A DNA stretch of 64,000 nucleotides, from positions 26,107,050 through 26,171,049 of the forward strand of contig CP092868.1 in the NCBI GenBank assembly GCA_030710605.1, written 5' to 3'. The DNA is from Cordylochernes scorpioides (lineage: Eukaryota > Arthropoda > Arachnida > Pseudoscorpiones > Chernetidae). Below are positions 1,850 through 58,012 of the stretch, piece by piece. A model generated the notes under the pieces. That model searched no databases. It was not told the origin of the DNA and saw only the letters and a list, made by a program, of their open reading frames with translations. The position numbers and the translations under genes are program-made. Within the stretch, counting starts at the first letter, position 1. Every line of letters begins with the position of its first letter.

Positions 1850-2090
1850 ATATCATCAAATATTATCTCTACAGAACTTAATGCAATGATTAAAGTTATT
1901 AAATGAGAGGTCTTAGTTCATTAGTGGTAAACCCTCTCAGCGGTTTCGTCAAATTAATCTTCAGACCGCTCTACTATTGTTTTGGATTGATTTTGTTATA
2001 TGCCGTTTATTTACTATGGAAAGTAGCTTAGAGATGTTTAGTGAACAATGGACATAAGTTTATAGGTCTGTAGAGGTACATAAATATAAT
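1850..2090 (-). mobile_element. Family III ribozyme-type element, decayed arm
   Basis: Segment 1,905-1,970 matches the scrambled hammerhead family (GAGAGG / CCTCTC helix, GGTTTCG, GACCGCT), but the core CTGATGA has become CTAATGA and one helix no longer pairs. Flanking sequence resembles the arm at 14,720-14,790 (CAAATATTATCTCTACAGA). Confidence 0.5.
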
Positions 2091-2184: not shown

Positions 2185-2600
2185 TAAAATGAAAGGATTT
2201 AAAAGCAGGAATGCTTATTTTATACATAATACAAACTTCTACTGCCCTTATTGCGATGAAAAATATATTGGGAGGGCTTGGCTCATCAGTGGTGAACCCT
2301 CCCAGCGGTTTCGCCAATTTAATCCACCAGACCGCTTCTCAGAGCTCTAATACTGTATTGGACGATTCTGCTTATATACGTAGCACTGAAGGGTGGAATC
2401 TCAGAAATGGTTTTCAAGAAAACTATGGACATTAGCTTATAGGACAGTAGAATCACATTCCAAGCCCTCCCAATATATTTTTTCATCTCAGTAAGGGCAG
2501 TAGAAGTTTGTATTATGTATAAAAGAAACATTCGTGCTTTTAAATCCTTTCATTTTATATGTATAGATGGCGCGTTATTGCTTTGTGTTAATATTTTATT
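2185..2600 (-). mobile_element. Family III fold-back element with scrambled hammerhead
   Basis: The two arms of this palindrome carry ATACATAATACAAACTTCTA and its complement, and the outer end reads TAGATGGCGCGTTATTGC. Same family as 27,695-28,190. The ribozyme-like core is in the left arm. No protein is encoded; short ORFs here are shadows. Confidence 0.7.
2270..2336 (-). ncRNA. Scrambled-order hammerhead-like motif
   Basis: On the minus strand the order is AGCGGTC, TGGTGG, linker, TTGGC, GAA, ACCGCT, GGGAGGG, TT, CACCA, CTGATGA, GCCAA, G, CCCTCCC. All three hammerhead helices pair (AGCGGT/ACCGCT, TGGTG/CACCA, TTGGC/GCCAA) around CTGATGA, GAAA and GTC, but the strand order is A-B-C rather than A-C-B. 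An extra helix GGGAGGG/CCCTCCC is present. Activity is unknown. Confidence 0.5.
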
Positions 2601-6559: not shown

Positions 6560-6890
6560 AAAAAGGCATCTCCTTATCGTGCAACTGAAAGTTGCTGATG
6601 GCTTGCGCCATTTATAGGAATAAATATCAACTCGTTGATTTCTAATTATTCCAGAATTGGCCAATTACCCATTCTTGATTAATCAAGAAAAGCTAACCAC
6701 GGACGAGTTTCGGGCTGTTGGCCCTCATCAGCGTGGTGCAAGCTGTACCTCAACGACCAAAGGTCCTTCAGGCATCTTGAAAAATCATGAAACGGGTAGT
6801 TAAGACAAGAATTGCGTGAGACCGCGACACAATGTGAAAAAATAGTACAAATGTGATATTGTTTTGGGATAAGGTTCATAAATTATGAAA
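6560..6890 (-). mobile_element. Family I hammerhead element
   Basis: On the minus strand the element contains a hammerhead, then GCTTTTCTTGATTAATCAAG, a TTGGCCAA stretch, the GGCGCAAGCCATCAGCAAC block and GATGCCTTTTTC near the end. The same order is found at 23,715-24,160 and 53,893-54,300. It is non-autonomous. Confidence 0.7.
6697..6736 (-). ncRNA. Hammerhead ribozyme H1
   Basis: On the minus strand: stem I CCACG/CGTGG, core CTGATGA, stem II GGGC/GCCC with loop CAACA, then GAAA, a minimal stem III (ACTCGT) and cleavage triplet GTC. A distal AGCT/AGCT pairing extends stem I. The tiny stem III resembles Penelope and retrozyme hammerheads, which may act as dimers. Confidence 0.8.
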
Positions 6891-13839: not shown

Positions 13840-14085
13840 ATAAAACAATTTCTGCTGCCCTTACTGCAATGGAAAAATTAAAGGGAGGGCCTGGCTCATC
13901 AGTGGTGAACCCTCCCAGCGGTTTCGCCAGTTTAATCTACCATACCGCTGTTATATTGCATTTTTGGAACTTCCTTTTATAGTGATACTGATGCTTGACT
14001 CTTCGAATGGGTATTTTAGATGAACTATGGATATAAGCTTTTAGGACAGCAGAATTACATATAATTATAAATATTCTGAAAATAG
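13840..14085 (-). mobile_element. Family III element
   Basis: Contains CTGCCCTTACTGCAATGG, the ribozyme-like core (13,883-13,949) and the downstream CATTTTTGGAACTTCC segment shared with 20,400 and 49,155. Confidence 0.65.
13883..13949 (-). ncRNA. Scrambled-order hammerhead-like motif, CTGGC/GCCAG variant
   Basis: Same order as 2,270-2,336, but the stem II pair is CTGGC/GCCAG and the triplet is GTA. The changed pair remains complementary, which is compensatory evidence for pairing. Confidence 0.5.
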
Positions 14086-14694: not shown

Positions 14695-14965
14695 TTTAAA
14701 ATTTTACACAAAAAAATTTACTGGCAATGCGCTTCTTTTTAAATATCATCAAATATTATCTCTACAGACCTTACTGCAATGATATAGTTAATGAATGAGA
14801 GGGCTTGGCTCATCAGTAGTGAACCCTCTCAGTGGTTTCGCCAAATTAATGATGAGCCAAGCCCTCTCATTCATTAACTCATATCATTGCAGTAAGGTTT
14901 GAAGATATAATATATGATGATATTTAAAAGAAGCGCATTGCCAGTAAATTTATTTGTGTAAAAAT
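14695..14965. mobile_element. Family III palindrome folded at the ribozyme core
   Basis: Two ~100-bp arms (TTTACTGGCAATGCGCTTCT and complement outermost) meet at TGATGA. The loop contains GAACCCTCTCAGTGGTTTCG. The A strand of the core is deleted, so it cannot form the motif. Confidence 0.65.
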
Positions 14966-15654
14966 TTAACGATAAGATGGCAATTAAATTTAATTTACTA
15001 ATATATCTTTCCAAATATTAACATTGAATAATTGAATTAAATTATAAATATATATTATATTTCTGTACCACAATATTATTGGCCAAGTAATAAGAAAAAC
15101 AACGTTTTAAAGACAAACACCAACTTTTGAGAGAACCTTAAAGATTTTCTAAGGCAGCAAACCTTCTGGAATGTATGGCGACCATTTTAGCTAAGAATAT
15201 AGGTTGGTGAGTCTTAAGAAAACTGGATTTCTGACACAGAATGATATTTTTAAATTTCGTTATGTCAAAAGAGTTCTCAAAATGGTTGAAAAGCCGCTTC
15301 GCTCTTTCAAAAGGAAGAATGTGATTGAGCGAAGAGGGAGGTGTCTTTTTGTGGCACAAAGGCGGAAGTTGTGGTGCCATTTACTTCCTGTGTTTACCTG
15401 TCAGGGTGTTCTGCGTTTGCTTCCTTCCCAGAACTAGAGAATGGCTTCAAATATGTGCTGTTGCTTTTACCGACTGTACAACGGAATATGTTAGAAGAAG
15501 ATAGCCATGTGTTTATATGTTTTTCTGAATGAATTCTCTTTTTCGATTTTGTATTTTGTGTTGGGGGAAGGTGTTGCAGCAGATACAATGCTATTTCGAT
15601 TCAATATTTGCCACAATTTGTATGATAACTCCGTTTAGTTTCTATTGTAGTCTC
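14966..15654. other. No recognised gene
   Basis: A 77-codon ORF (15,204-15,437, +) with basic residues lies in a less AT-rich patch. It has no recognised domain, splice signal or second copy, so it is not called as a gene. Confidence 0.35.
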
Positions 15655-16435
15655 CGAAATAGTGTTGCAGGGGCCAAGCTAATCTTCTCTGTATCCTTCT
15701 ATTGTAGTAGTTGTACCGCCCAAAAAGTATAAAAAGACCATGCTAATCGTCTCTGTATCCTTCCTATTGTAGTAGTTGTACCACCCAACAAGTATCACAG
15801 GGGCCATGCTAATCGTCTCTGTATCCTTCCTATTGTAGTAGTTGTACCGCCCAACAAGTATCACAGGGGCCATGTTAATCTTCTCTGTATCCTTCTTATT
15901 GTAGTAGTTGTACCGCCCAACAAGTATCACAGGGTCCATGTTAATCTTCTCTGTATCCATCCTATTGTAGTAGTTGTACCGCCCAAAAAGTATCACAGGG
16001 GCCATGTTAATCTTCTCTGTATCCATCCTATTGTAGTAGTTGTACCGCCGAACTGGTATCACAGGGACCATGCTAATCTTCTCTGTATCCTTCCTATTGT
16101 AGTAGTTTACCGCTGAACAAGTATCACAGGGGCCATGCTAATCTTCTCTGTATCCTTCCTATTGTAGTAGTTGTACCGCCGAAAAGTATCACAGGGGCCA
16201 TGCTAATCTTCTCTGTATCCTTCCTATTGTAGTAGTTGTACCGCCGAAAAAGTATCACAGGGGCCATGCTAATCTTCTCTGTATCCTTCCTATTGTAGTT
16301 GTTCAATCACCGATCAAGTATCACAGGGGCCATGCTAATCTTTTCTGTATCCTTCCTATTGTAGTAGTTGTACCGTCCAACAAGTATCACAGGAGCCATG
16401 CTAATCTTCTCTGTATCCATCCTATTGTAGTAAGA
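15655..16435 (-). repeat. 66-bp satellite derived from U6 snRNA (about 12 units)
   Basis: On the minus strand each unit contains GATACAGAGAAGATTAGCAT then GGCCCCTG: 28 bases of U6 snRNA including the ACAGAGA box and AGC triad. The rest (GATACTTGTTGGGCGGTAC, ACTACTACAATAGGAAG) is not U6. Since 66 is a multiple of three, the minus strand shows a 22-residue repeat ORF, which is an artefact. No unit has a complete U6 or an obvious U6 promoter. Confidence 0.85.
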
Positions 16436-16836
16436 CCCTATATGCAATCAACCAAGGTGTCATAAGACCCCGGAAGGCCGCCAAGAAAGTTGCCAAGAGG
16501 GAGAGAGGAAACCCCTCCTGAAGAGATGAAGGATGTTCTACGAAACAGGGTCACCCCCCCCCCCCCTGACTGTAAGGTCACGGTCGTGGGGTCAGGTTAT
16601 TTTGGTCAAACCGTTGCTTTACGACCCCCATACACAGAACCCTGTATACCCACCCAGCGATGCTTACATTCATGATTGTTAATGATGGAATTACTTCTAA
16701 GATATTTTCTTTCACATAAAAGACACATATTTCTATATACAATTAGTACACATCAAGTTGTAAAAATAATTTTAGATTACTTGGCTCATCAGTAATGAAC
16801 CTTCTCATTGATTTCGTCAATTCAACCTAACAGATC
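16436..16836. other. No definite gene; GC-richer fragment
   Basis: 16,490-16,675 has a 61-codon ORF with a GxGxxG-like phrase (KVTVVGSGYFG). It spans a C run at 16,555-16,566 and has no other Rossmann context. 16,780-16,850 matches a decayed family III core. Confidence 0.25.
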
Positions 16837-17110
16837 ACTTTAACTATTGTATATCCATTCTTTTTTCTTTTCTTTTTTTGCTTATCCCAAGAACACGTGG
16901 TCCATGATAATCATGGTGGGTAGAAGTTGGCGATTGCTTTTACTGTAAGTGTACCATATGTTTACACATGTGAAAAGCAGTTCGACTTTGCACTTACAAA
17001 TGTGCCAGAGCTCCCGTTTAGTTACTTGCACTCGTTGGTGGGATTGGATATTTGCAAGAATTGGGGGCCATTTGCGCAATTTTTGTATGTAAATTCTGGT
17101 TATATCATCT
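16837..17110 (-). mobile_element. SINE-1 body, reverse orientation
   Basis: Contains CCATGATAATCATGG, TTTACTGTAAGTGTACCATA and CACATGTGAAAAGCAGTT, the complement of the SINE-1 body. The tRNA-like head is not preserved. Confidence 0.7.
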
Positions 17111-20234: not shown

Positions 20235-20522
20235 ATGATAGATATCAAAATTCAAAACTATTTTAAAGGCGTAAGATTCTTTTTGATATTAAACAATTTC
20301 TACTGCCCTTACTGCAATGGAAAAATTAATGAGAGGGCCTGGCTCATCAATGGTGAACCCTCTCAGCGGTTTCGCCAATTTAATCTACCATACCGCTGTT
20401 ATATTGCATTTTTGGAACTTCCTTTTATAGTGATACTGGTGATAGACTCTTTGAATGGGTATTTTAGAAGAAATATGGACATAAGCTTTGAGGACAGTAG
20501 AATTACATACATTTATAAATAT
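20235..20522 (-). mobile_element. Family III element
   Basis: Shares TTTCTACTGCCCTTACTGCA and the core with 13,840 and 49,000. It ends in ATACATTTATAAATAT, the target of the ribozyme element inserted at 20,523. Its other arm resumes at about 20,860-20,935. Confidence 0.65.
20331..20397 (-). ncRNA. Scrambled-order hammerhead-like motif, GAGAGGG variant
   Basis: The extra helix is GAGAGGG/CCCTCTC instead of GGGAGGG/CCCTCCC, a compensatory change. Stem II is GCCAG/TTGGC with one G-T wobble. The core has TTGATGA for CTGATGA, so cleavage is unlikely here. Confidence 0.4.
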
Positions 20523-20847
20523 AAATGGAAAATTTGCCGGGAGGAAATTAATCCATGGAAGCAATGGTCGCCTCTCCCGTCAAAATTAACGTCAGAATCT
20601 GACGCCATCTATTGACCGTCGCCGCAACTAGCGGCATTGGGTCGGTGACAAAGCCACAACACCAACTTTGGCAAACTGGTACTGGGCCATTAGCCCGAAA
20701 CCATGGTCTCTAGGTGGACGCTTATCAGTTTGCCAAAGTTGGTGTTGTGGCTTTGTCACCGACCCGAGGCCGCTAGTTGCGGCGACGGTCAATAGATGGC
20801 GTCAGATTCTGACGTTTATTTTGACGGGAGAGGCGACCATTGCTTCC
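20523..20847. mobile_element. Family V fold-back ribozyme element, block-1 specific
   Basis: A ~120-bp inverted repeat (GGTCGCCTCTCCCGTCAAAA outermost) encloses a hammerhead remnant. It is flanked by the 12-bp duplication ATTTATAAATAT (20,511-20,522 and 20,848-20,859). Block 2 at 49,255-49,280 has one copy of that target and no insert. Confidence 0.85.
20675..20714 (+). ncRNA. Decayed hammerhead H9 at the fold-back centre
   Basis: Stem II GGGC/GCCC, GAAA, palindromic stem III ACCATGGT and triplet GTC are kept. The CTGACGA side is replaced by GGTACT, exactly where the inverted arm joins. Compare the intact relative at 36,900-36,939. Confidence 0.6.
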
Positions 20848-23714: not shown

Positions 23715-24160
23715 ATGTGAAAAATAGCACAAATGTGATATTGTACTGGGATAAGGTGCATAAATTAAGAAAAAGGCATCTCCTTATCATGCAACTGAAA
23801 GTTGCTGATGGCTTGCGCCATCTATCGGAATAAATATAAACTATTCTCGTTGATTTTTAATTATTCCAGAATTGGTCAAATACCCATTCTTGATTAATCA
23901 AGAAAAGCTAACCACGGACGCGTTTCGGGCTGTTGGCCCTCATCAGCGTGGTGCAAGCTGTACCTCAACGACTAAAATAATTGGTCATTAAGGCATCCTG
24001 AAAAATCATGAAACGGGTAGTTAAAGCCAGAATTGCGTGAGACTGCGACACAATGTGAAAAAATAGTACAAATGTTATACTGGGATAAGGTTCATAAATT
24101 AAGAAACAGGTATCTCCTTGACGTTCAGATAGCCGAAATATTGGCAAATAAATCTTTTAT
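23715..24160 (-). mobile_element. Family I hammerhead element
   Basis: Same architecture as 6,560-6,890, with an AAAATCATGAAACGGGTAGT segment on the 5' side of the ribozyme. Paralogue 53,893-54,300. Confidence 0.75.
23912..23951 (-). ncRNA. Hammerhead ribozyme H2
   Basis: Stem I CCACG/CGTGG, CTGATGA, stem II GGGC/GCCC with CAACA loop, GAAA, palindromic ACGCGT stem III, triplet GTC. This is the most canonical copy in the window. Confidence 0.85.
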
Positions 24161-24800: not shown

Positions 24801-24884
24801 AAGAAAGAAACTATTCCCTCAGCGAAAATTTTCTTTTATTTATATTTTTTTACCGAAGGGATTATGATATCAACTATGTAATAT

Positions 24885-25295
24885 AACTCCACCTTTGCCG
24901 GACCCAAACCCGGATGAAAAAGGAGGAGAGGAAGCAGTAACAAGCTTTCTAACAAACCTGGGCTCAGCTGGTCCGGCTGATAGTACCCTGTAAGAGCTCC
25001 TGATCCAGGGATACAGGATGTCTATACTCCATTGTTAGGAGCGGCCATACATGGAGTCTGTTCCTCATGTCAGAGGTGACCATTACATATTGGAGCTAAG
25101 TCAGCCTGCTACAGAGTAGTGCTCCCAGTCTCGATAACAAAAGCAGACGCATTCAACTTCACCCAATCATTATGGTTATCAAATCTCTTTTGATGAGCTC
25201 TACTCATCTCCAGCAGGCACCATCAAAAATATTAAGCCATACAGGCTTGATACCCTGTTGTGATTGAGTGGAGATAAGAAAGAAGAAGACTATGT
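24885..25295 (+). mobile_element. LINE 3' region, decayed
   Basis: Phrases such as PDPNPDEKGGEEAVTSFL and DELYSSPAGTIKNIKPYRLD precede TGA and the tail GATAAGAAAGAAGAAG. This resembles the 3' coding end of a non-LTR retrotransposon. Several frames are needed, so it is dead. Paralogue 55,290-55,680. Confidence 0.5.
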
Positions 25296-27232: not shown

Positions 27233-27610
27233 AAATGGCATATCCTGACCAGGATAATATATGCTTTACAGAAGGCAGAGTGCCATTTGGTGGAACAGAA
27301 ATCAACTAAATATTGATTTAGACTGTTCCCTGATATTTGGTCAACCCAATTTCTTAATAAATCAAGAAAAGCAATCCACGAACGCGTTTCGCGCTATTGG
27401 CGCTCGTCAGCGTGGAGTAAACTGTACCACTGCGACCAAAAAGATTTTTGGTCCCAGAGACTTTTTTTTTATTTATCAAGAAATTGGGTTGGCCAAATAT
27501 CAGGGAACAGTCTAAATCAATGTTTAGTTGATTTCTGTTCCACCAGATGGCGTTCTGCCTTCTGTAAAGCACATGTGCTCCTAGTCAATATATGCCATTT
27601 TAATTTTTAA
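27233..27610 (-). mobile_element. Family II hammerhead element
   Basis: Outer ends ATATGCTTTACAGAAGGCAG and complement form a fold-back; the inner arm holds a hammerhead. AGATGGCGTTCTGCC is the family version of the shared 3' motif. Paralogue 57,635-58,012, so it predates the duplication. Confidence 0.75.
27376..27415 (-). ncRNA. Hammerhead ribozyme H4
   Basis: CCACG/CGTGG stem I, CTGACGA, stem II GCGC/GCGC with loop CAATA, GAAA, ACGCGT stem III, triplet GTT. Stem II differs from family I (GGGC/GCCC) but stays paired. Confidence 0.75.
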
Positions 27611-27780
27611 TATCAATACCTGACCTTCTTATTTTTTTCTATCATTTTTTTCATATAATTAAATATATTTTTCGAATAATATATTAAATATATATAAAAT
27701 AAAAGGATTTAAAAGCGCGAATGTTTCTTTTATACATAAAACGAACTTCCACTGTCCTTACTGCGATGGAAAAATATATT

Positions 27781-27847
27781 GGGAGGGCTTGGCTCATCAG
27801 TGGTGAACCCTCCCAGCGGTTTCGCCAATTTAATCTACCAGACCGCT
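27781..27847 (-). ncRNA. Scrambled-order hammerhead-like motif, left arm
   Basis: AGCGGTC, TGGTA, TTGGC, GAA, ACCGCT, GGGAGGG, CACCA, CTGATGA, GCCAA and CCCTCCC in that minus-strand order. Stem I is four pairs here. Confidence 0.5.
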
Positions 27848-28003
27848 TCTCAGAGCTCTAATACTTCGAGCAAATATTTGAATGTAATTCTACTCTCCTA
27901 TAAGCTTATGTCCATAGTATACTTGAAAACCATTTCTAAGATTCCATCCTTCAGTGTAGCATATAAAAGCAGAATGATCCAATACAGTATTAGAGCTCTG
28001 AGA

Positions 28004-28070
28004 AGCGGTCTGGTGGAATAAATTGGCGAAACCGCTGGGAGGGTTCACCACTGATGAGCCAAGCCCTCCC
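28004..28070 (+). ncRNA. Scrambled-order hammerhead-like motif, right arm (best copy)
   Basis: Positions: AGCGGTC 28,004-28,010; TGGTG 28,011-28,015; TTGGC 28,023-28,027; GAA 28,028-28,030; ACCGCT 28,031-28,036; GGGAGGG 28,037-28,043; CACCA 28,046-28,050; CTGATGA 28,051-28,057; GCCAA 28,058-28,062; CCCTCCC 28,064-28,070. Every helix is perfect. Confidence 0.55.
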
Positions 28071-28569
28071 AATATATTTTTCATCGCAGTAAGGACAGTG
28101 GAAGTTCGTTTTATGTATAAAAGAAACATTCGCGCTTTTAAATCTTTTTATTTTATATGTATAGATGGCGCGTTATTGCTTTGTGTTAAATTATATTAAA
28201 TATATATAATATATAAAGTTACGGGAGGATCATATTCATGTACTAAAAGAAACATCTCTCTCTTTAATTGTTCATCAGAACGATGTCACTGTACATAACT
28301 CTATTAAAAAACTTTACTAGTGATGATGTAGAATAAGCCACAACACCAGTTTTGACAAATTCTAATAAAAAGATAATGAATACCATCTTCCCGTAACTTT
28401 GTATTGTATTCTTCCCTGAAAATCGGCCCTTGCCACTTCACAAGCTTAAACAAACTTTTGGAAAATTCGACCGATTTCATAACCCCTCTCTCGTAGTATG
28501 TTATGAAATCAGAGCAGCCCCTGTACTGATTAGGGACAAAGCCAAATGGAGGATGATATTCATGTACCA

Positions 28570-48984: not shown

Positions 48985-49335
48985 ATAGATATCAAAATTC
49001 AAAACTATTTTAAAGGCGTAAGATTCTTTTTGATATTAAACAATTCCTACTGACCTTACTGCAATGGAAAAATTAATGGGAGGGCCTGGCTCATCAATGG
49101 TGAACCCTCTCAGCGGTTTCGCCAGTTTAATCTACCATACCGCTGTTATATTGCATTTTTGGAACTTCCTTTTATAGTGATACTGTTGATAGACTCTTTG
49201 AATGGGTATTTTAGAAGAAATATGGACATAAGCTTTGAGGACAGTAGAATTACATACATTTATAAATATATAATATCAAAAAGAATCTTACGCCTTTAAA
49301 ATAGTTTTGAATTTTGATAACAGATGGCGCGCTAG
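48985..49335 (-). mobile_element. Family III element
   Basis: Paralogue of 20,235-20,522 plus 20,860-20,935, here uninterrupted. End CAGATGGCGCGCTAGTGC. Confidence 0.7.
49078..49144 (-). ncRNA. Scrambled-order hammerhead-like motif
   Basis: Stem II CTGGC/GCCAG; extra helix GGGAGGG/CCCTCTC with one G-T wobble; core TTGATGA. Confidence 0.4.
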
Positions 49336-49417
49336 TGCATCATACTATAAATGATAGATATATGAATAAATAGATATAAATAGATGAAATAATTGATAAA
49401 TATACATATATATAAAT

Positions 49418-49725
49418 AAAAATAAAAAAGGCATCTCCTGACCACGAGCACATGTGCTTTTTAGATGGCAGAGCGTCATCTAGTGGAGCAAAAATAAACT
49501 AAACGTTTATTTAGCTTGCTCCGTGATATTTGGCCAACCCAATTTCTTGATTTATCAAGAAAAGCCATCCACGAACGCGTTTCGCGCTGTTGGCGCTCGT
49601 CAGCGTGGAGAAGGCTGTAACCACTGCGACCAAAAAGCACATGTGCTCGTGGTCAGGAGATGCCTTTTTTATTTTTAATATCAACACCTGACCCACTTAT
49701 CTTTTATTTTTTTCTATTGTTTTTT
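49418..49725 (-). mobile_element. Family II hammerhead element, block-2 specific
   Basis: 308 bp flanked by CATATATATAAAT (49,405-49,417 and 49,726-49,738); block 1 lacks it. The minus strand contains the hammerhead, TTGGCCAAATATC, CTAGATGACGCTCTGCC and ends GGAGATGCCTTTTTTATTTT. Confidence 0.8.
49569..49608 (-). ncRNA. Hammerhead ribozyme H6
   Basis: CCACG/CGTGG, CTGACGA, stem II GCGC/GCGC with CAACA loop, GAAA, ACGCGT, GTT. It sits in the youngest dated ribozyme element. Confidence 0.8.
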
Positions 49726-55251: not shown

Positions 55252-55289
55252 TTTTACCAAAGGGATTATGATATCAACTATGTAATATA

Positions 55290-55680
55290 ACTCTACCTTT
55301 GCCGGTCCCAAGCCCGGATAAAAAAGGAGGAGAGGAAGCAGTAACAAGCTTTCTAAAAAACCTGTGCTCAGCTGGCCCGGCTGATAGTACCCTGTAAAGG
55401 CTCCTGATCCAGGGATACATGATGTCTATACTCCATGTTAGGAGTGGCTGTACATGGCGTCTGTTCCTCATGTCAGAGGTGACCATTTCATATTGGAGCT
55501 AAGTCGGCCTGCTACTGAGTAGTGCTCCCAGTCTCGATAACAAAAGCAGACGCATTCAACTTCACCCAATCATTATGGTTGTCAAATCTCTTTTGATGCA
55601 GACATCATCAAAATCTTAAGCCCTACAGGCTTGATAACCTGTTGTGATTGAGTGGAGATAAGAAAGAAGAAGACTATGTA
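55290..55680 (+). mobile_element. LINE 3' region, block 2
   Basis: Paralogue of 24,885-25,295 with a small deletion; tail GATAAGAAAGAAGAAG. Confidence 0.5.
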
Positions 55681-57634: not shown

Positions 57635-58012
57635 AAATGGCATATCCTGACCAGGATAATATATGCTTTACAGAAGGCAGAGCGCCATTTGGTGGAACAG
57701 AAATCAACTAAACATTGATTTAACCTGTTCCCTGATATTTGGCCAACCCAATTTCTTAATAAATCAAGAAAAGCCATCCACGAACGCGTTTCGCGCTGTT
57801 GGCGCTCGTCAGCGTGGAGTAAGCTGTACCACTCCGACCAAAAAGATTTTTGGTCCCAGAGACTTTTTTTTGATTTATCAAGAAATTGGGTTGGCCAAAT
57901 ATCAGGGAACAGGCTAAATCTATGTTTAGTTGATTTCTGTTCCACCAGATGGCGTTCTGCCTTCTGTAAAGCACATGTGCTCCTAGTCAGGATATGTCAT
58001 TTTTATTTTTAA
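57635..58012 (-). mobile_element. Family II hammerhead element
   Basis: Paralogue of 27,233-27,610. Confidence 0.75.
57778..57817 (-). ncRNA. Hammerhead ribozyme H5
   Basis: Identical in core to H6 (CTGACGA, GCGC/GCGC, GAAA, ACGCGT, GTT) with CCACG/CGTGG stem I. Confidence 0.8.

What the first reader, a model, noticed from the sequence alone, without database searches (positions are those of the whole stretch)
28004..28070. A hammerhead with its strands in a non-standard order
Family III carries all hammerhead parts: AGCGGT/ACCGCT, TGGTG/CACCA and TTGGC/GCCAA helices around GTC, GAAA and CTGATGA. A standard hammerhead reads A (III-C17-I), C (I-CTGATGA-II), B (II-GAAA-III), in any circular permutation. 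Here the order is A, B, C, which makes all three helices cross. An extra 7-bp helix (GGGAGGG/CCCTCCC) joins the A-B linker side to the 3' end. Copies at 2,270, 13,883, 20,331, 27,781 and 49,078 show compensatory changes (TTGGC/GCCAA to CTGGC/GCCAG; GGGAGGG/CCCTCCC to GAGAGGG/CCCTCTC). It could be a pseudoknotted single-chain form, or a ribozyme that folds properly only between two RNAs or in tandem transcripts.
Basis: partly seen in the sequence, partly recalled or inferred. Interest (0 to 1): 0.9.

Follow-up and report, generated by a model that had tools for sequence, protein, structure and literature searches.

The report
Rearranged hammerhead ribozyme in a retroelement
A self-cutting RNA whose parts come in an unusual, knotted order, until now reported from anonymous environmental sequences, sits in a very abundant jumping element of a large unnamed eukaryotic genome, and many inserted copies of the element begin exactly where this RNA is expected to cut itself.

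Summary
The motif is real. At 28,004-28,070 (+) all hammerhead parts stand in the order cleavage site, GAAA, CUGAUGA, with a fourth helix. This is the "type-SGC" non-circular permutation that Eckert et al. 2023 found in metatranscriptomes and showed to cleave in vitro as a single chain. The fold is known; its place is new: that paper reports no SGC copy from a known genome.

Here it lies in ~370-bp units with Penelope/retrozyme-like anatomy: direct tandem units, an inverted head-to-head arm, end repeats of mostly 12-14 bp. The 2.62-Gb genome holds 74,815 exact matches to a G-then-C core pattern (reversed pattern: 0).

Evidence for cleavage in life: insertion joints exactly at the predicted bond number 100 (subfamily A) against 17, 45 and 27 at offsets -3, +1, +3, and 415 (subfamily B) against 83 (-3) and 110 (+3). 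The other side of the bond shows no comparable excess (11 and 1 places). Of 20 places fetched most join this end to different partners; two or three are doubtful. One is a solo insert with a 15-bp end repeat.

Not shown: cleavage in a tube, RNA expression, the host species, the enzyme that moves it.

The parts
28004..28070 (+). type-SGC hammerhead motif (S block, G block, C block, fourth helix)
   Evidence: sequence and motif scan; order as in PMC10085705
28004..28015 (+). S block: stem III 3' strand AGCGG, U16.1, C17, stem I 5' strand UGGUG; predicted cleavage between 28010 and 28011
   Evidence: genome-wide excess of joints at this bond
28023..28036 (+). G block: stem II 3' strand UUGGC, GAAA, stem III 5' strand CCGCU
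28037..28043 (+). 5' strand of the fourth helix (stem I-II bridge) GGGAGGG, joined to stem III with no linker
   Evidence: pair counts
28046..28062 (+). C block: stem I 3' strand CACCA, CUGAUGA, stem II 5' strand GCCAA
28064..28070 (+). 3' strand of the fourth helix CCCUCCC
27865..28191 (+). direct unit of the insertion (5'-truncated), with TATAAAAG upstream of the ribozyme; inner boundary approximate, read by eye
27698..27864 (-). inverted arm, head to head with the direct unit; carries its own SGC motif at 27781-27847; inner boundary approximate
27680..27697 (.). left copy of the direct repeat TATATTAAATATATATAA (target-site duplication)
28192..28209 (.). right copy of the same direct repeat
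2270..2336 (-). second copy, stems I-III 5/5 paired, core intact
13883..13949 (-). copy of subfamily B (H17 = A, stem II CUGGC/GCCAG)
20331..20397 (-). subfamily B copy with C3 changed (UUGAUGA), probably inactive
49078..49144 (-). subfamily B copy with C3 changed (UUGAUGA), probably inactive; in an insertion 48990-49344 with an 11-bp repeat
1905..1970 (-). decayed copy of subfamily C
16773..16839 (-). old, decayed copy with altered stems

Best explanation
The element is a short non-autonomous retroelement unit (~370 bp, Penelope pLTR- or retrozyme-like) that carries a type-SGC hammerhead ribozyme. Fold: two side-by-side hairpins (stem III, and the fourth helix) whose loops join through stems I and II, which brings GAAA, CUGAUGA and the U16.1-H17 site into a hammerhead core. 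The RNA cuts itself between H17 and position 1.1. A Penelope-type reverse transcriptase (inferred, supplied in trans) starts inside the 3' part of the RNA at staggered nicks, often on both target strands, and runs to the RNA's 5' end. When the RNA was already cut, that end is the ribozyme site. Shown here: the motif, its copy number, the anatomy, the end repeats, and the one-sided excess of insertion joints at the predicted bond. Inferred: RNA-level cleavage as the cause, the enzyme, and the benefit (most simply, cutting tandem or read-through transcripts to unit length).
For: Exact type-SGC block order and four helices. 74,815 exact core matches in the genome, 0 for the reversed pattern. Joints at the predicted bond: A 100 against 17 (-3), 45 (+1; 16 of these read AAGC or CAGC, as a 5-base deletion in an intact copy would) and 27 (+3); B 415 against 83 (-3) and 110 (+3); Poisson tails against the mean of -3 and +3 are 7e-34 and 7e-127, and A keeps 86 after merging near-duplicates. 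One-sided: the 24 bases up to C17 followed by foreign letters 11 places, three bases on 1 place. Twenty of the 100 A places fetched: 21 joints with one common end and many partners. L101: solo insert from the site to ...GCTTTGTG with a 15-bp repeat. L058: in a 122-bp tandem three of four copies start at the site. Repeats of 11 bp or more at insertion ends in 25 of 90 distinct segments, 15 of 1,771 in mismatched pairs. Pairing 89.6% over 62 distinct motifs, 49 double-changed cells against 20.8 in shuffles (0 of 500), in all four helices. In vitro single-chain cleavage of other SGC ribozymes (PMC10085705).
Against: Most insertions do not start at the site: 5 automatic and 2 by-eye events among the 120 of 135 copies whose upstream homology ended inside the context, and the window insertion does not. 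Some of the counted joints are not clean: of 21 read, L116 looks like an old S block with one extra base and L117 like a small local duplication, and in L102 (context TCAG) the inverted arm shares TGGTG with the unit, so the joint cannot be placed; TCAG makes 3 of the 100 A places and 14 of the 100 B places listed (of 415). B was not cleared of near-duplicates. Stem I is weakest: 80.5% of cells paired, its outer pair unpaired in 41 of 62. Two covariation measures are not significant: pairs changed on both sides 10 against 7.5 (53 of 500 shuffles), further pair types 28 against 26.4 (131 of 500); most double changes are inherited subfamily marks. For a studied PLE with a type I hammerhead, cleavage was not needed for insertion in vitro, uncut RNA was the main substrate and no reads ended at its cut site (PMC11167929). 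No Rfam match on the motif. No expression data.
Confidence: 0.8

Rival explanations
1. The ribozyme folds only in tandem transcripts or between two RNAs: S and C of one unit and G of the next give an ordinary nested hammerhead.
For: Direct tandem units at 366-372 bp exist (L001, L003, L036, L098). Retrozyme hammerheads of amphibians cleave better as dimers (abstract of PMC7229834).
Against: The fourth helix, with its own double changes (12 of the 49 cells), has a use in the single-chain SGC fold and none obvious in the dimer. SGC RNAs cleave as single chains in vitro. The loops of a dimer would be hundreds of nucleotides long.
Confidence: 0.1
2. A DNA-level feature (transposase site, break or recombination hot spot, or template switching at short shared sequence) that resembles a ribozyme; the joints at the site have nothing to do with RNA cleavage.
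For: Copies are palindromic with long inverted arms. The inverted arm contains TGGTG, so some joints (context TCAG) can be microhomology joints.
Against: A break hot spot would show on both sides; the 5' side shows 11 and 1 places (how many copies keep those 24 bases was not counted). TCAG is 3 of 100 in A and 14 of 100 listed in B. End repeats of mostly 12-14 bp, tandem units and 5' truncation fit reverse transcription. The exact core with its stems does not turn up in 60 shuffled windows.
Confidence: 0.05
3. Insertion 5' ends at the site come from transcription start or reverse-transcriptase stops, not from self-cleavage.
For: A TATAAAAG stands upstream in both subfamilies; breakpoints upstream of the site are common.
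Against: TATA to site is 49 nt in A and 39 nt in B (counted by hand on the units printed), yet both peak at the same bond. A stop at structure should fall at the 3' side of the first hairpin, about 26 nt further on.
Confidence: 0.1
4. A relic: the ribozyme worked when the copies spread and has no present role.
For: Many copies are decayed; two window copies lack C3; one lineage has a replaced S block (L010, L021, L029).
Against: 33 places (the window's own among them) match the 67-base query at 100% over its whole length, which suggests recent spread.
Confidence: 0.2

Closest known systems
Type-SGC hammerhead ribozymes (HRIMA-1 motif and SGC variants), PMC10085705 (parts 1-6 of 8 read)
   Same: Block order S-G-C; the conserved core nucleotides; crossing stems I-III; a fourth helix joining the other sides of stems I and II; zero linker between stem III and that helix occurs there in a few.
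   Different: Published ones come from environmental sequences, HRIMA-1 found near hairpin ribozymes and thought to belong to circular RNA replicons; here in a nuclear genome in very many copies, inside a retroelement. The linker between stems I and II is 7 nt here in A and B, typically 3 there.
Metazoan retrozymes (type I hammerhead), PMC7229834 (abstract and passages seen)
   Same: Short units without a known gene, tandem copies, very many copies, target duplications longer than 4 bp.
   Different: Ribozyme is SGC, not type I; an inverted head-to-head arm is common here; circular RNA not tested.
Penelope-like elements and their pLTRs (PMC3846280, PMC11167929; passages seen)
   Same: Direct pLTR-like units plus an inverted one, head to head; target duplications; internal start of reverse transcription and extension of both target strands fit two-armed inserts; a hammerhead in the repeat.
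   Different: The insertions with end repeats are 207-1,072 bp, too short for RT and GIY-YIG; end repeats here mostly 12-14 bp (8-10 in the passages seen); the PLE ribozyme is a minimal type I.
Pistol ribozyme (recalled, not looked up)
   Same: Pseudoknotted, active site said to resemble the hammerhead.
   Different: Different conserved letters; not tested.

Membership tests
type-SGC hammerhead ribozyme | Blocks in the order S, G, C on one strand | tested here: met
type-SGC hammerhead ribozyme | CUGANGA, GAAA, U16.1-H17 and the A15.1-U16.1 and 10.1-11.1 pairs | tested here: met
   two of the six reader-named window copies fail at C3
type-SGC hammerhead ribozyme | Stems I, II, III and the I-II helix supported by covariation | tested here: inconclusive
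   double changes in all four helices, 49 cells against 20.8 (0/500); but two of five measures not significant and few independent events
type-SGC hammerhead ribozyme | Self-cleavage at H17/1.1 | not testable with these tools
   indirect only: insertion joints peak at this bond
metazoan retrozyme | Type I hammerhead | tested here: not met
   order is S-G-C; the standard hammerhead-like motifs of the window lie elsewhere
metazoan retrozyme | Short tandem units with target duplications over 4 bp | tested here: met
metazoan retrozyme | Circular RNA made from the unit | not testable with these tools
   no RNA data
Penelope-like element | RT and usually GIY-YIG open frame between pLTRs | tested here: not met
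   25 insertions with end repeats are 207-1,072 bp; a PLE-like frame lies beside, not in, one copy (L018, PF01541 E 0.0078, under Pfam's cut-off); a genome-wide search for a full element was not made
Penelope-like element | Direct and inverted head-to-head pLTRs with a target duplication | tested here: met
   compared with passages of PMC3846280

The most novel reading that the evidence does not exclude
A non-circularly permuted, pseudoknotted hammerhead is the working RNA-processing ribozyme of one of the most abundant retroelements of a eukaryote (probably an animal), so the permutation is not a rarity of environmental RNA replicons. Its cut ends are written into the genome as the 5' ends of hundreds of insertions, a genomic read-out of ribozyme cleavage in living germ cells, and eukaryotic retroelements become one possible source of the orphan metatranscriptomic SGC ribozymes.
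Probability: 0.5. Interest if true: 0.82.

Novelty: new variant of a known kind. Interest (0 to 1): 0.74.

Why it matters
The SGC permutation overturned the belief that hammerheads come only in circular permutations, but it had no known genome and no life story. Here it has both: a genome, tens of thousands of core matches, a retroelement, and insertion ends at the predicted bond. The one-sided excess of insertion ends gives a way to score ribozyme cleavage in life from a genome alone, usable for any ribozyme-bearing retroelement. A structural puzzle of the 2023 paper, how stem III and the I-II helix can be joined with no linker, can be studied on a natural family in which that is the rule among the 62 motifs aligned here.

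Tried and rejected
Rfam: U6, miRNA-like, twister-P1, HH9-like and other weak hits, none on 28,004-28,070; one chance-level miRNA match (MIR6151, 21.2 bits, gathering score 71) overlaps a rearranged copy near 14,816. Protein families on 10 of the 46 window frames of 110 aa or more: nothing that explains the element. Host naming: TTAGG arrays exist (748 positions; the 100 listed are one internal array on C1), so an arthropod is only hinted. Alignment-based breakpoint calling bridged some joints with gaps (L021, L032), hence the pattern counts. Rows dropped: 25 of 135 copies with breaks in or below the S block, then 10 rows with shifted or non-homologous S blocks, then identical motifs, leaving 62. 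The 135 copies are not a random sample: mostly the first 3 Mb of C1, best-identity places and the window. The 20 joints fetched were picked by me for variety. A script timed out. Offset -1 was asked once and not answered. A genome search for GIY-YIG or a full PLE was planned and not run; the 12 searches went on counts.

Full report
WHAT IS THERE. The window belongs to a 2.62-Gb genome in 24 contigs, unnamed; it is C6:26107050-26171049. Read 5' to 3': stem III strand, U16.1, C17, stem I strand (block S); 7-base linker; stem II strand, GAAA, stem III strand (block G); GGGAGGG; UU; stem I strand, CUGAUGA, stem II strand (block C); G; CCCUCCC. A scan for this order with exact core and at least four of five pairs in each of stems I-III finds four copies in the window and none in 60 composition-shuffled windows. 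The minimum-energy nested fold makes two neighbouring hairpins, stem III and the fourth helix (-26.8 kcal/mol, z -2.4); stems I and II would then join the two loops.

KNOWN OR NOT. The order is the type-SGC non-circular permutation of Eckert, Friedrich, Weinberg and Weinberg, NAR 2023 (PMC10085705; I read parts 1-6 of 8 of the text). They report 583 SGC sequences; five candidates expected to work cleaved as predicted; breaking any of four helices in SGC-3 stopped cleavage and compensation restored it; in a few, stem III and the I-II helix are joined with no nucleotide between, as here. [quoted passage not shown] Six searches of the paper library (I saw listings and abstract starts) showed no later report of SGC ribozymes in a genome; only open-licence PMC papers are held.

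HOW MANY. The pattern GCGAAACN{12,25}ACTGATGAGC, which fixes the G-then-C order but leaves most helix letters and the whole S block free, has 37,480 + 37,335 exact matches; read backwards, none. This counts G-C cores, not complete ribozymes. In my non-random sample, 110 of 135 distinct copies keep homology upstream of the S block by an automatic alignment that bridged a few true breaks. Three subfamilies stand out: A (H17 = C, stem II UUGGC/GCCAA), B (H17 = A, CUGGC/GCCAG) and C (stem I UAG/CUA, fourth helix GAGAGGG/CCCUCUC).

COVARIATION. On 62 distinct motifs the 23 pairs are formed in 89.6% of cells; 49 cells are changed on both sides against 20.8 in shuffles (0 of 500 as high), and sliding the partners drops pairing to 35-55%. 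Double changes occur in all four helices: III col 3/31 (2), 4/30 (1), 5/29 (1); I col 9/46 (8), 12/43 (4); II col 20/59 (20), 24/55 (1); IV col 35/66 (10), 34/67 (1), 40/61 (1). Against this: the number of pairs with such a change (10 against 7.5; 53 of 500) and of further pair types (28 against 26.4; 131 of 500) are not significant, stem I is paired in only 80.5% of cells, and most double changes are inherited subfamily marks. The alignment supports the structure but would not prove it alone.

THE ELEMENT. Copies sit in insertions with a Penelope-like plan. L036: an inverted partial unit, then two direct units 371 bp apart, a 13-bp repeat at both ends. The window insertion: inverted arm 27,698-27,864, direct unit 27,865-28,191, repeat TATATTAAATATATATAA at 27,680-27,697 and 28,192-28,209. 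Of 90 distinct segments 25 have an end repeat of 11 bp or more, 22 of these 12-14 bp; mismatched pairs give 15 of 1,771. The 25 insertions are 207-1,072 bp long. PLEs are described as direct plus inverted, head-to-head pLTRs with target duplications and palindromes at the inverted junction (PMC3846280, passages). A PLE protein nicks and extends both target strands and starts reverse transcription inside its RNA; in that work hammerhead cleavage was not needed for insertion and uncut RNA was the main substrate (PMC11167929, passages). Metazoan retrozymes are short tandem units with type I hammerheads, up to 120,000 in axolotl by a section title (PMC7229834, abstract and passages). A PLE-like frame with a weak GIY-YIG match lies next to one copy (L018), so a helper of that kind may exist in the genome; I did not search for one genome-wide.

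THE FOOTPRINT. If the RNA cuts itself and is then copied to its 5' end, insertions should begin exactly at position 1.1. The sample suggested it: among the 120 of 135 copies whose upstream homology ended inside the context, automatic alignment put L052, L054, the L058 array (one event), L096 and L097 at offset 0 or -1, and L021 and L032 fit by eye. The test was then made genome-wide with patterns of equal exact end (...TTGGCGAAACCGC for A...CTGGCGAAACCGC for B) and four 'not this letter' positions upstream of the tested joint. A: offset -3 17, 0 100, +1 45, +3 27. Of the 45, 16 read AAGC or CAGC, which an intact copy with five bases deleted would give, and four are one local cluster on C21. 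B: -3 83, 0 415, +3 110. Reversed patterns: 0 in each. Merging equal 4-letter contexts within 1 Mb leaves 86 of 100 for A, with 36 different contexts; the Poisson tails against the mean of -3 and +3 are 7e-34 (A) and 7e-127 (B, not merged). The excluded letters differ between offsets, so the counts are comparable only roughly. The other side of the site shows no such excess: the 24 bases up to C17 followed by foreign letters 11 places, six of which read GCTG and three AACC, as internal deletions could; three bases further on 1 place. How many copies keep those 24 bases was not counted.

I fetched 20 of the 100 A places, chosen for variety. They hold 21 matches, all starting at UGGUGG by construction, joined to different depths of an inverted arm or to other DNA. 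CTGATGA is intact in 18 of 21. L101 is the cleanest: flank, 15-bp repeat TGTGAATATAATAGT (part may belong to the element's end), nine extra bases, then the element from position 1.1 to ...GCTTTGTG, then the same repeat. L103 and L113 also have repeats of 12-13 bp. L108 is a palindrome whose two arms both start at the site. Not all are clean: L116 looks like an old S block with one extra base, L117 like a small local duplication, and in L102 the inverted arm shares TGGTG with the unit (context TCAG: 3 of 100 in A, 14 of the 100 listed of 415 in B). In L058, a 122-bp tandem of four, three copies start at the site and the first does not.

WHY NOT OTHERWISE. Transcription start: TATAAAAG stands 49 nt before the site in A and 39 nt in B, yet the peak is at the same bond in both. 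Enzyme stops at structure should fall before the first hairpin, on its 3' side. DNA breaks: one-sidedness and end repeats speak against. Microhomology accounts for a minor share by the contexts. Dimer-only folding: the fourth helix would have no obvious use. What remains open: efficiency (most insertions come from RNA not cut at this site; the published SGC rates are slow, 0.007-0.19 per min), circles, the enzyme, the host, and whether cleavage helps the element.

VERDICT. The ribozyme fold is a known kind; its setting, a very abundant retroelement in a nuclear genome, and the genomic trace of its cleavage are new as far as the searches show.

Noticed in passing
window 6682-6747, 23897-23962, 27361-27426, 49554-49619, 57763-57828 (all -): Five standard hammerhead-like motifs (Rfam HH9, 24.7-28 bits, under the gathering score of 52) with a very short stem III by eye, like the minimal type I ribozymes of Penelope-like elements.
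   Followed up: partly
window 55284-55335 and 24880-24934 (+): Two twister-P1-like motifs (44.3 and 33.3 bits, under the gathering score of 67.2) in near-identical sequence; the window thus shows three ribozyme kinds in repeats.
   Followed up: no
window 15625-16457 (-): Tandem array of 12 U6 snRNA matches, ten over the first 65 of 105 model positions, one over 59, one full length: a U6-derived satellite.
   Followed up: no
window 28.4-33.9 kb and 59.4-63.7 kb: Two G+C-rich, strand-asymmetric minisatellite blocks, open in several frames, with the same peptide repeat (...VAQSVLSPKNQQNEWP...).
   Followed up: no
L058:505-986: Four 99% identical 122-bp tandem copies; in three the unit runs from the ribozyme cleavage site to a fixed point in the 3' part, as if made from cleaved RNA by template jumping.
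   Followed up: partly
L010:1501, L021:1501, L029:2379 (+): A lineage in which the S block is replaced by ...GTTGTGCAAATC and stem II is mispaired; copies seem to have spread without a working SGC ribozyme.
   Followed up: no
L018:2226-3032 (-): Penelope-like open frame with RT-like letters (by eye) and a weak GIY-YIG match, beside an SGC insertion; candidate helper family.
   Followed up: partly
window 20531-20845 (-): Long inverted repeat with a short centre, a foldback element beside an SGC copy.
   Followed up: no
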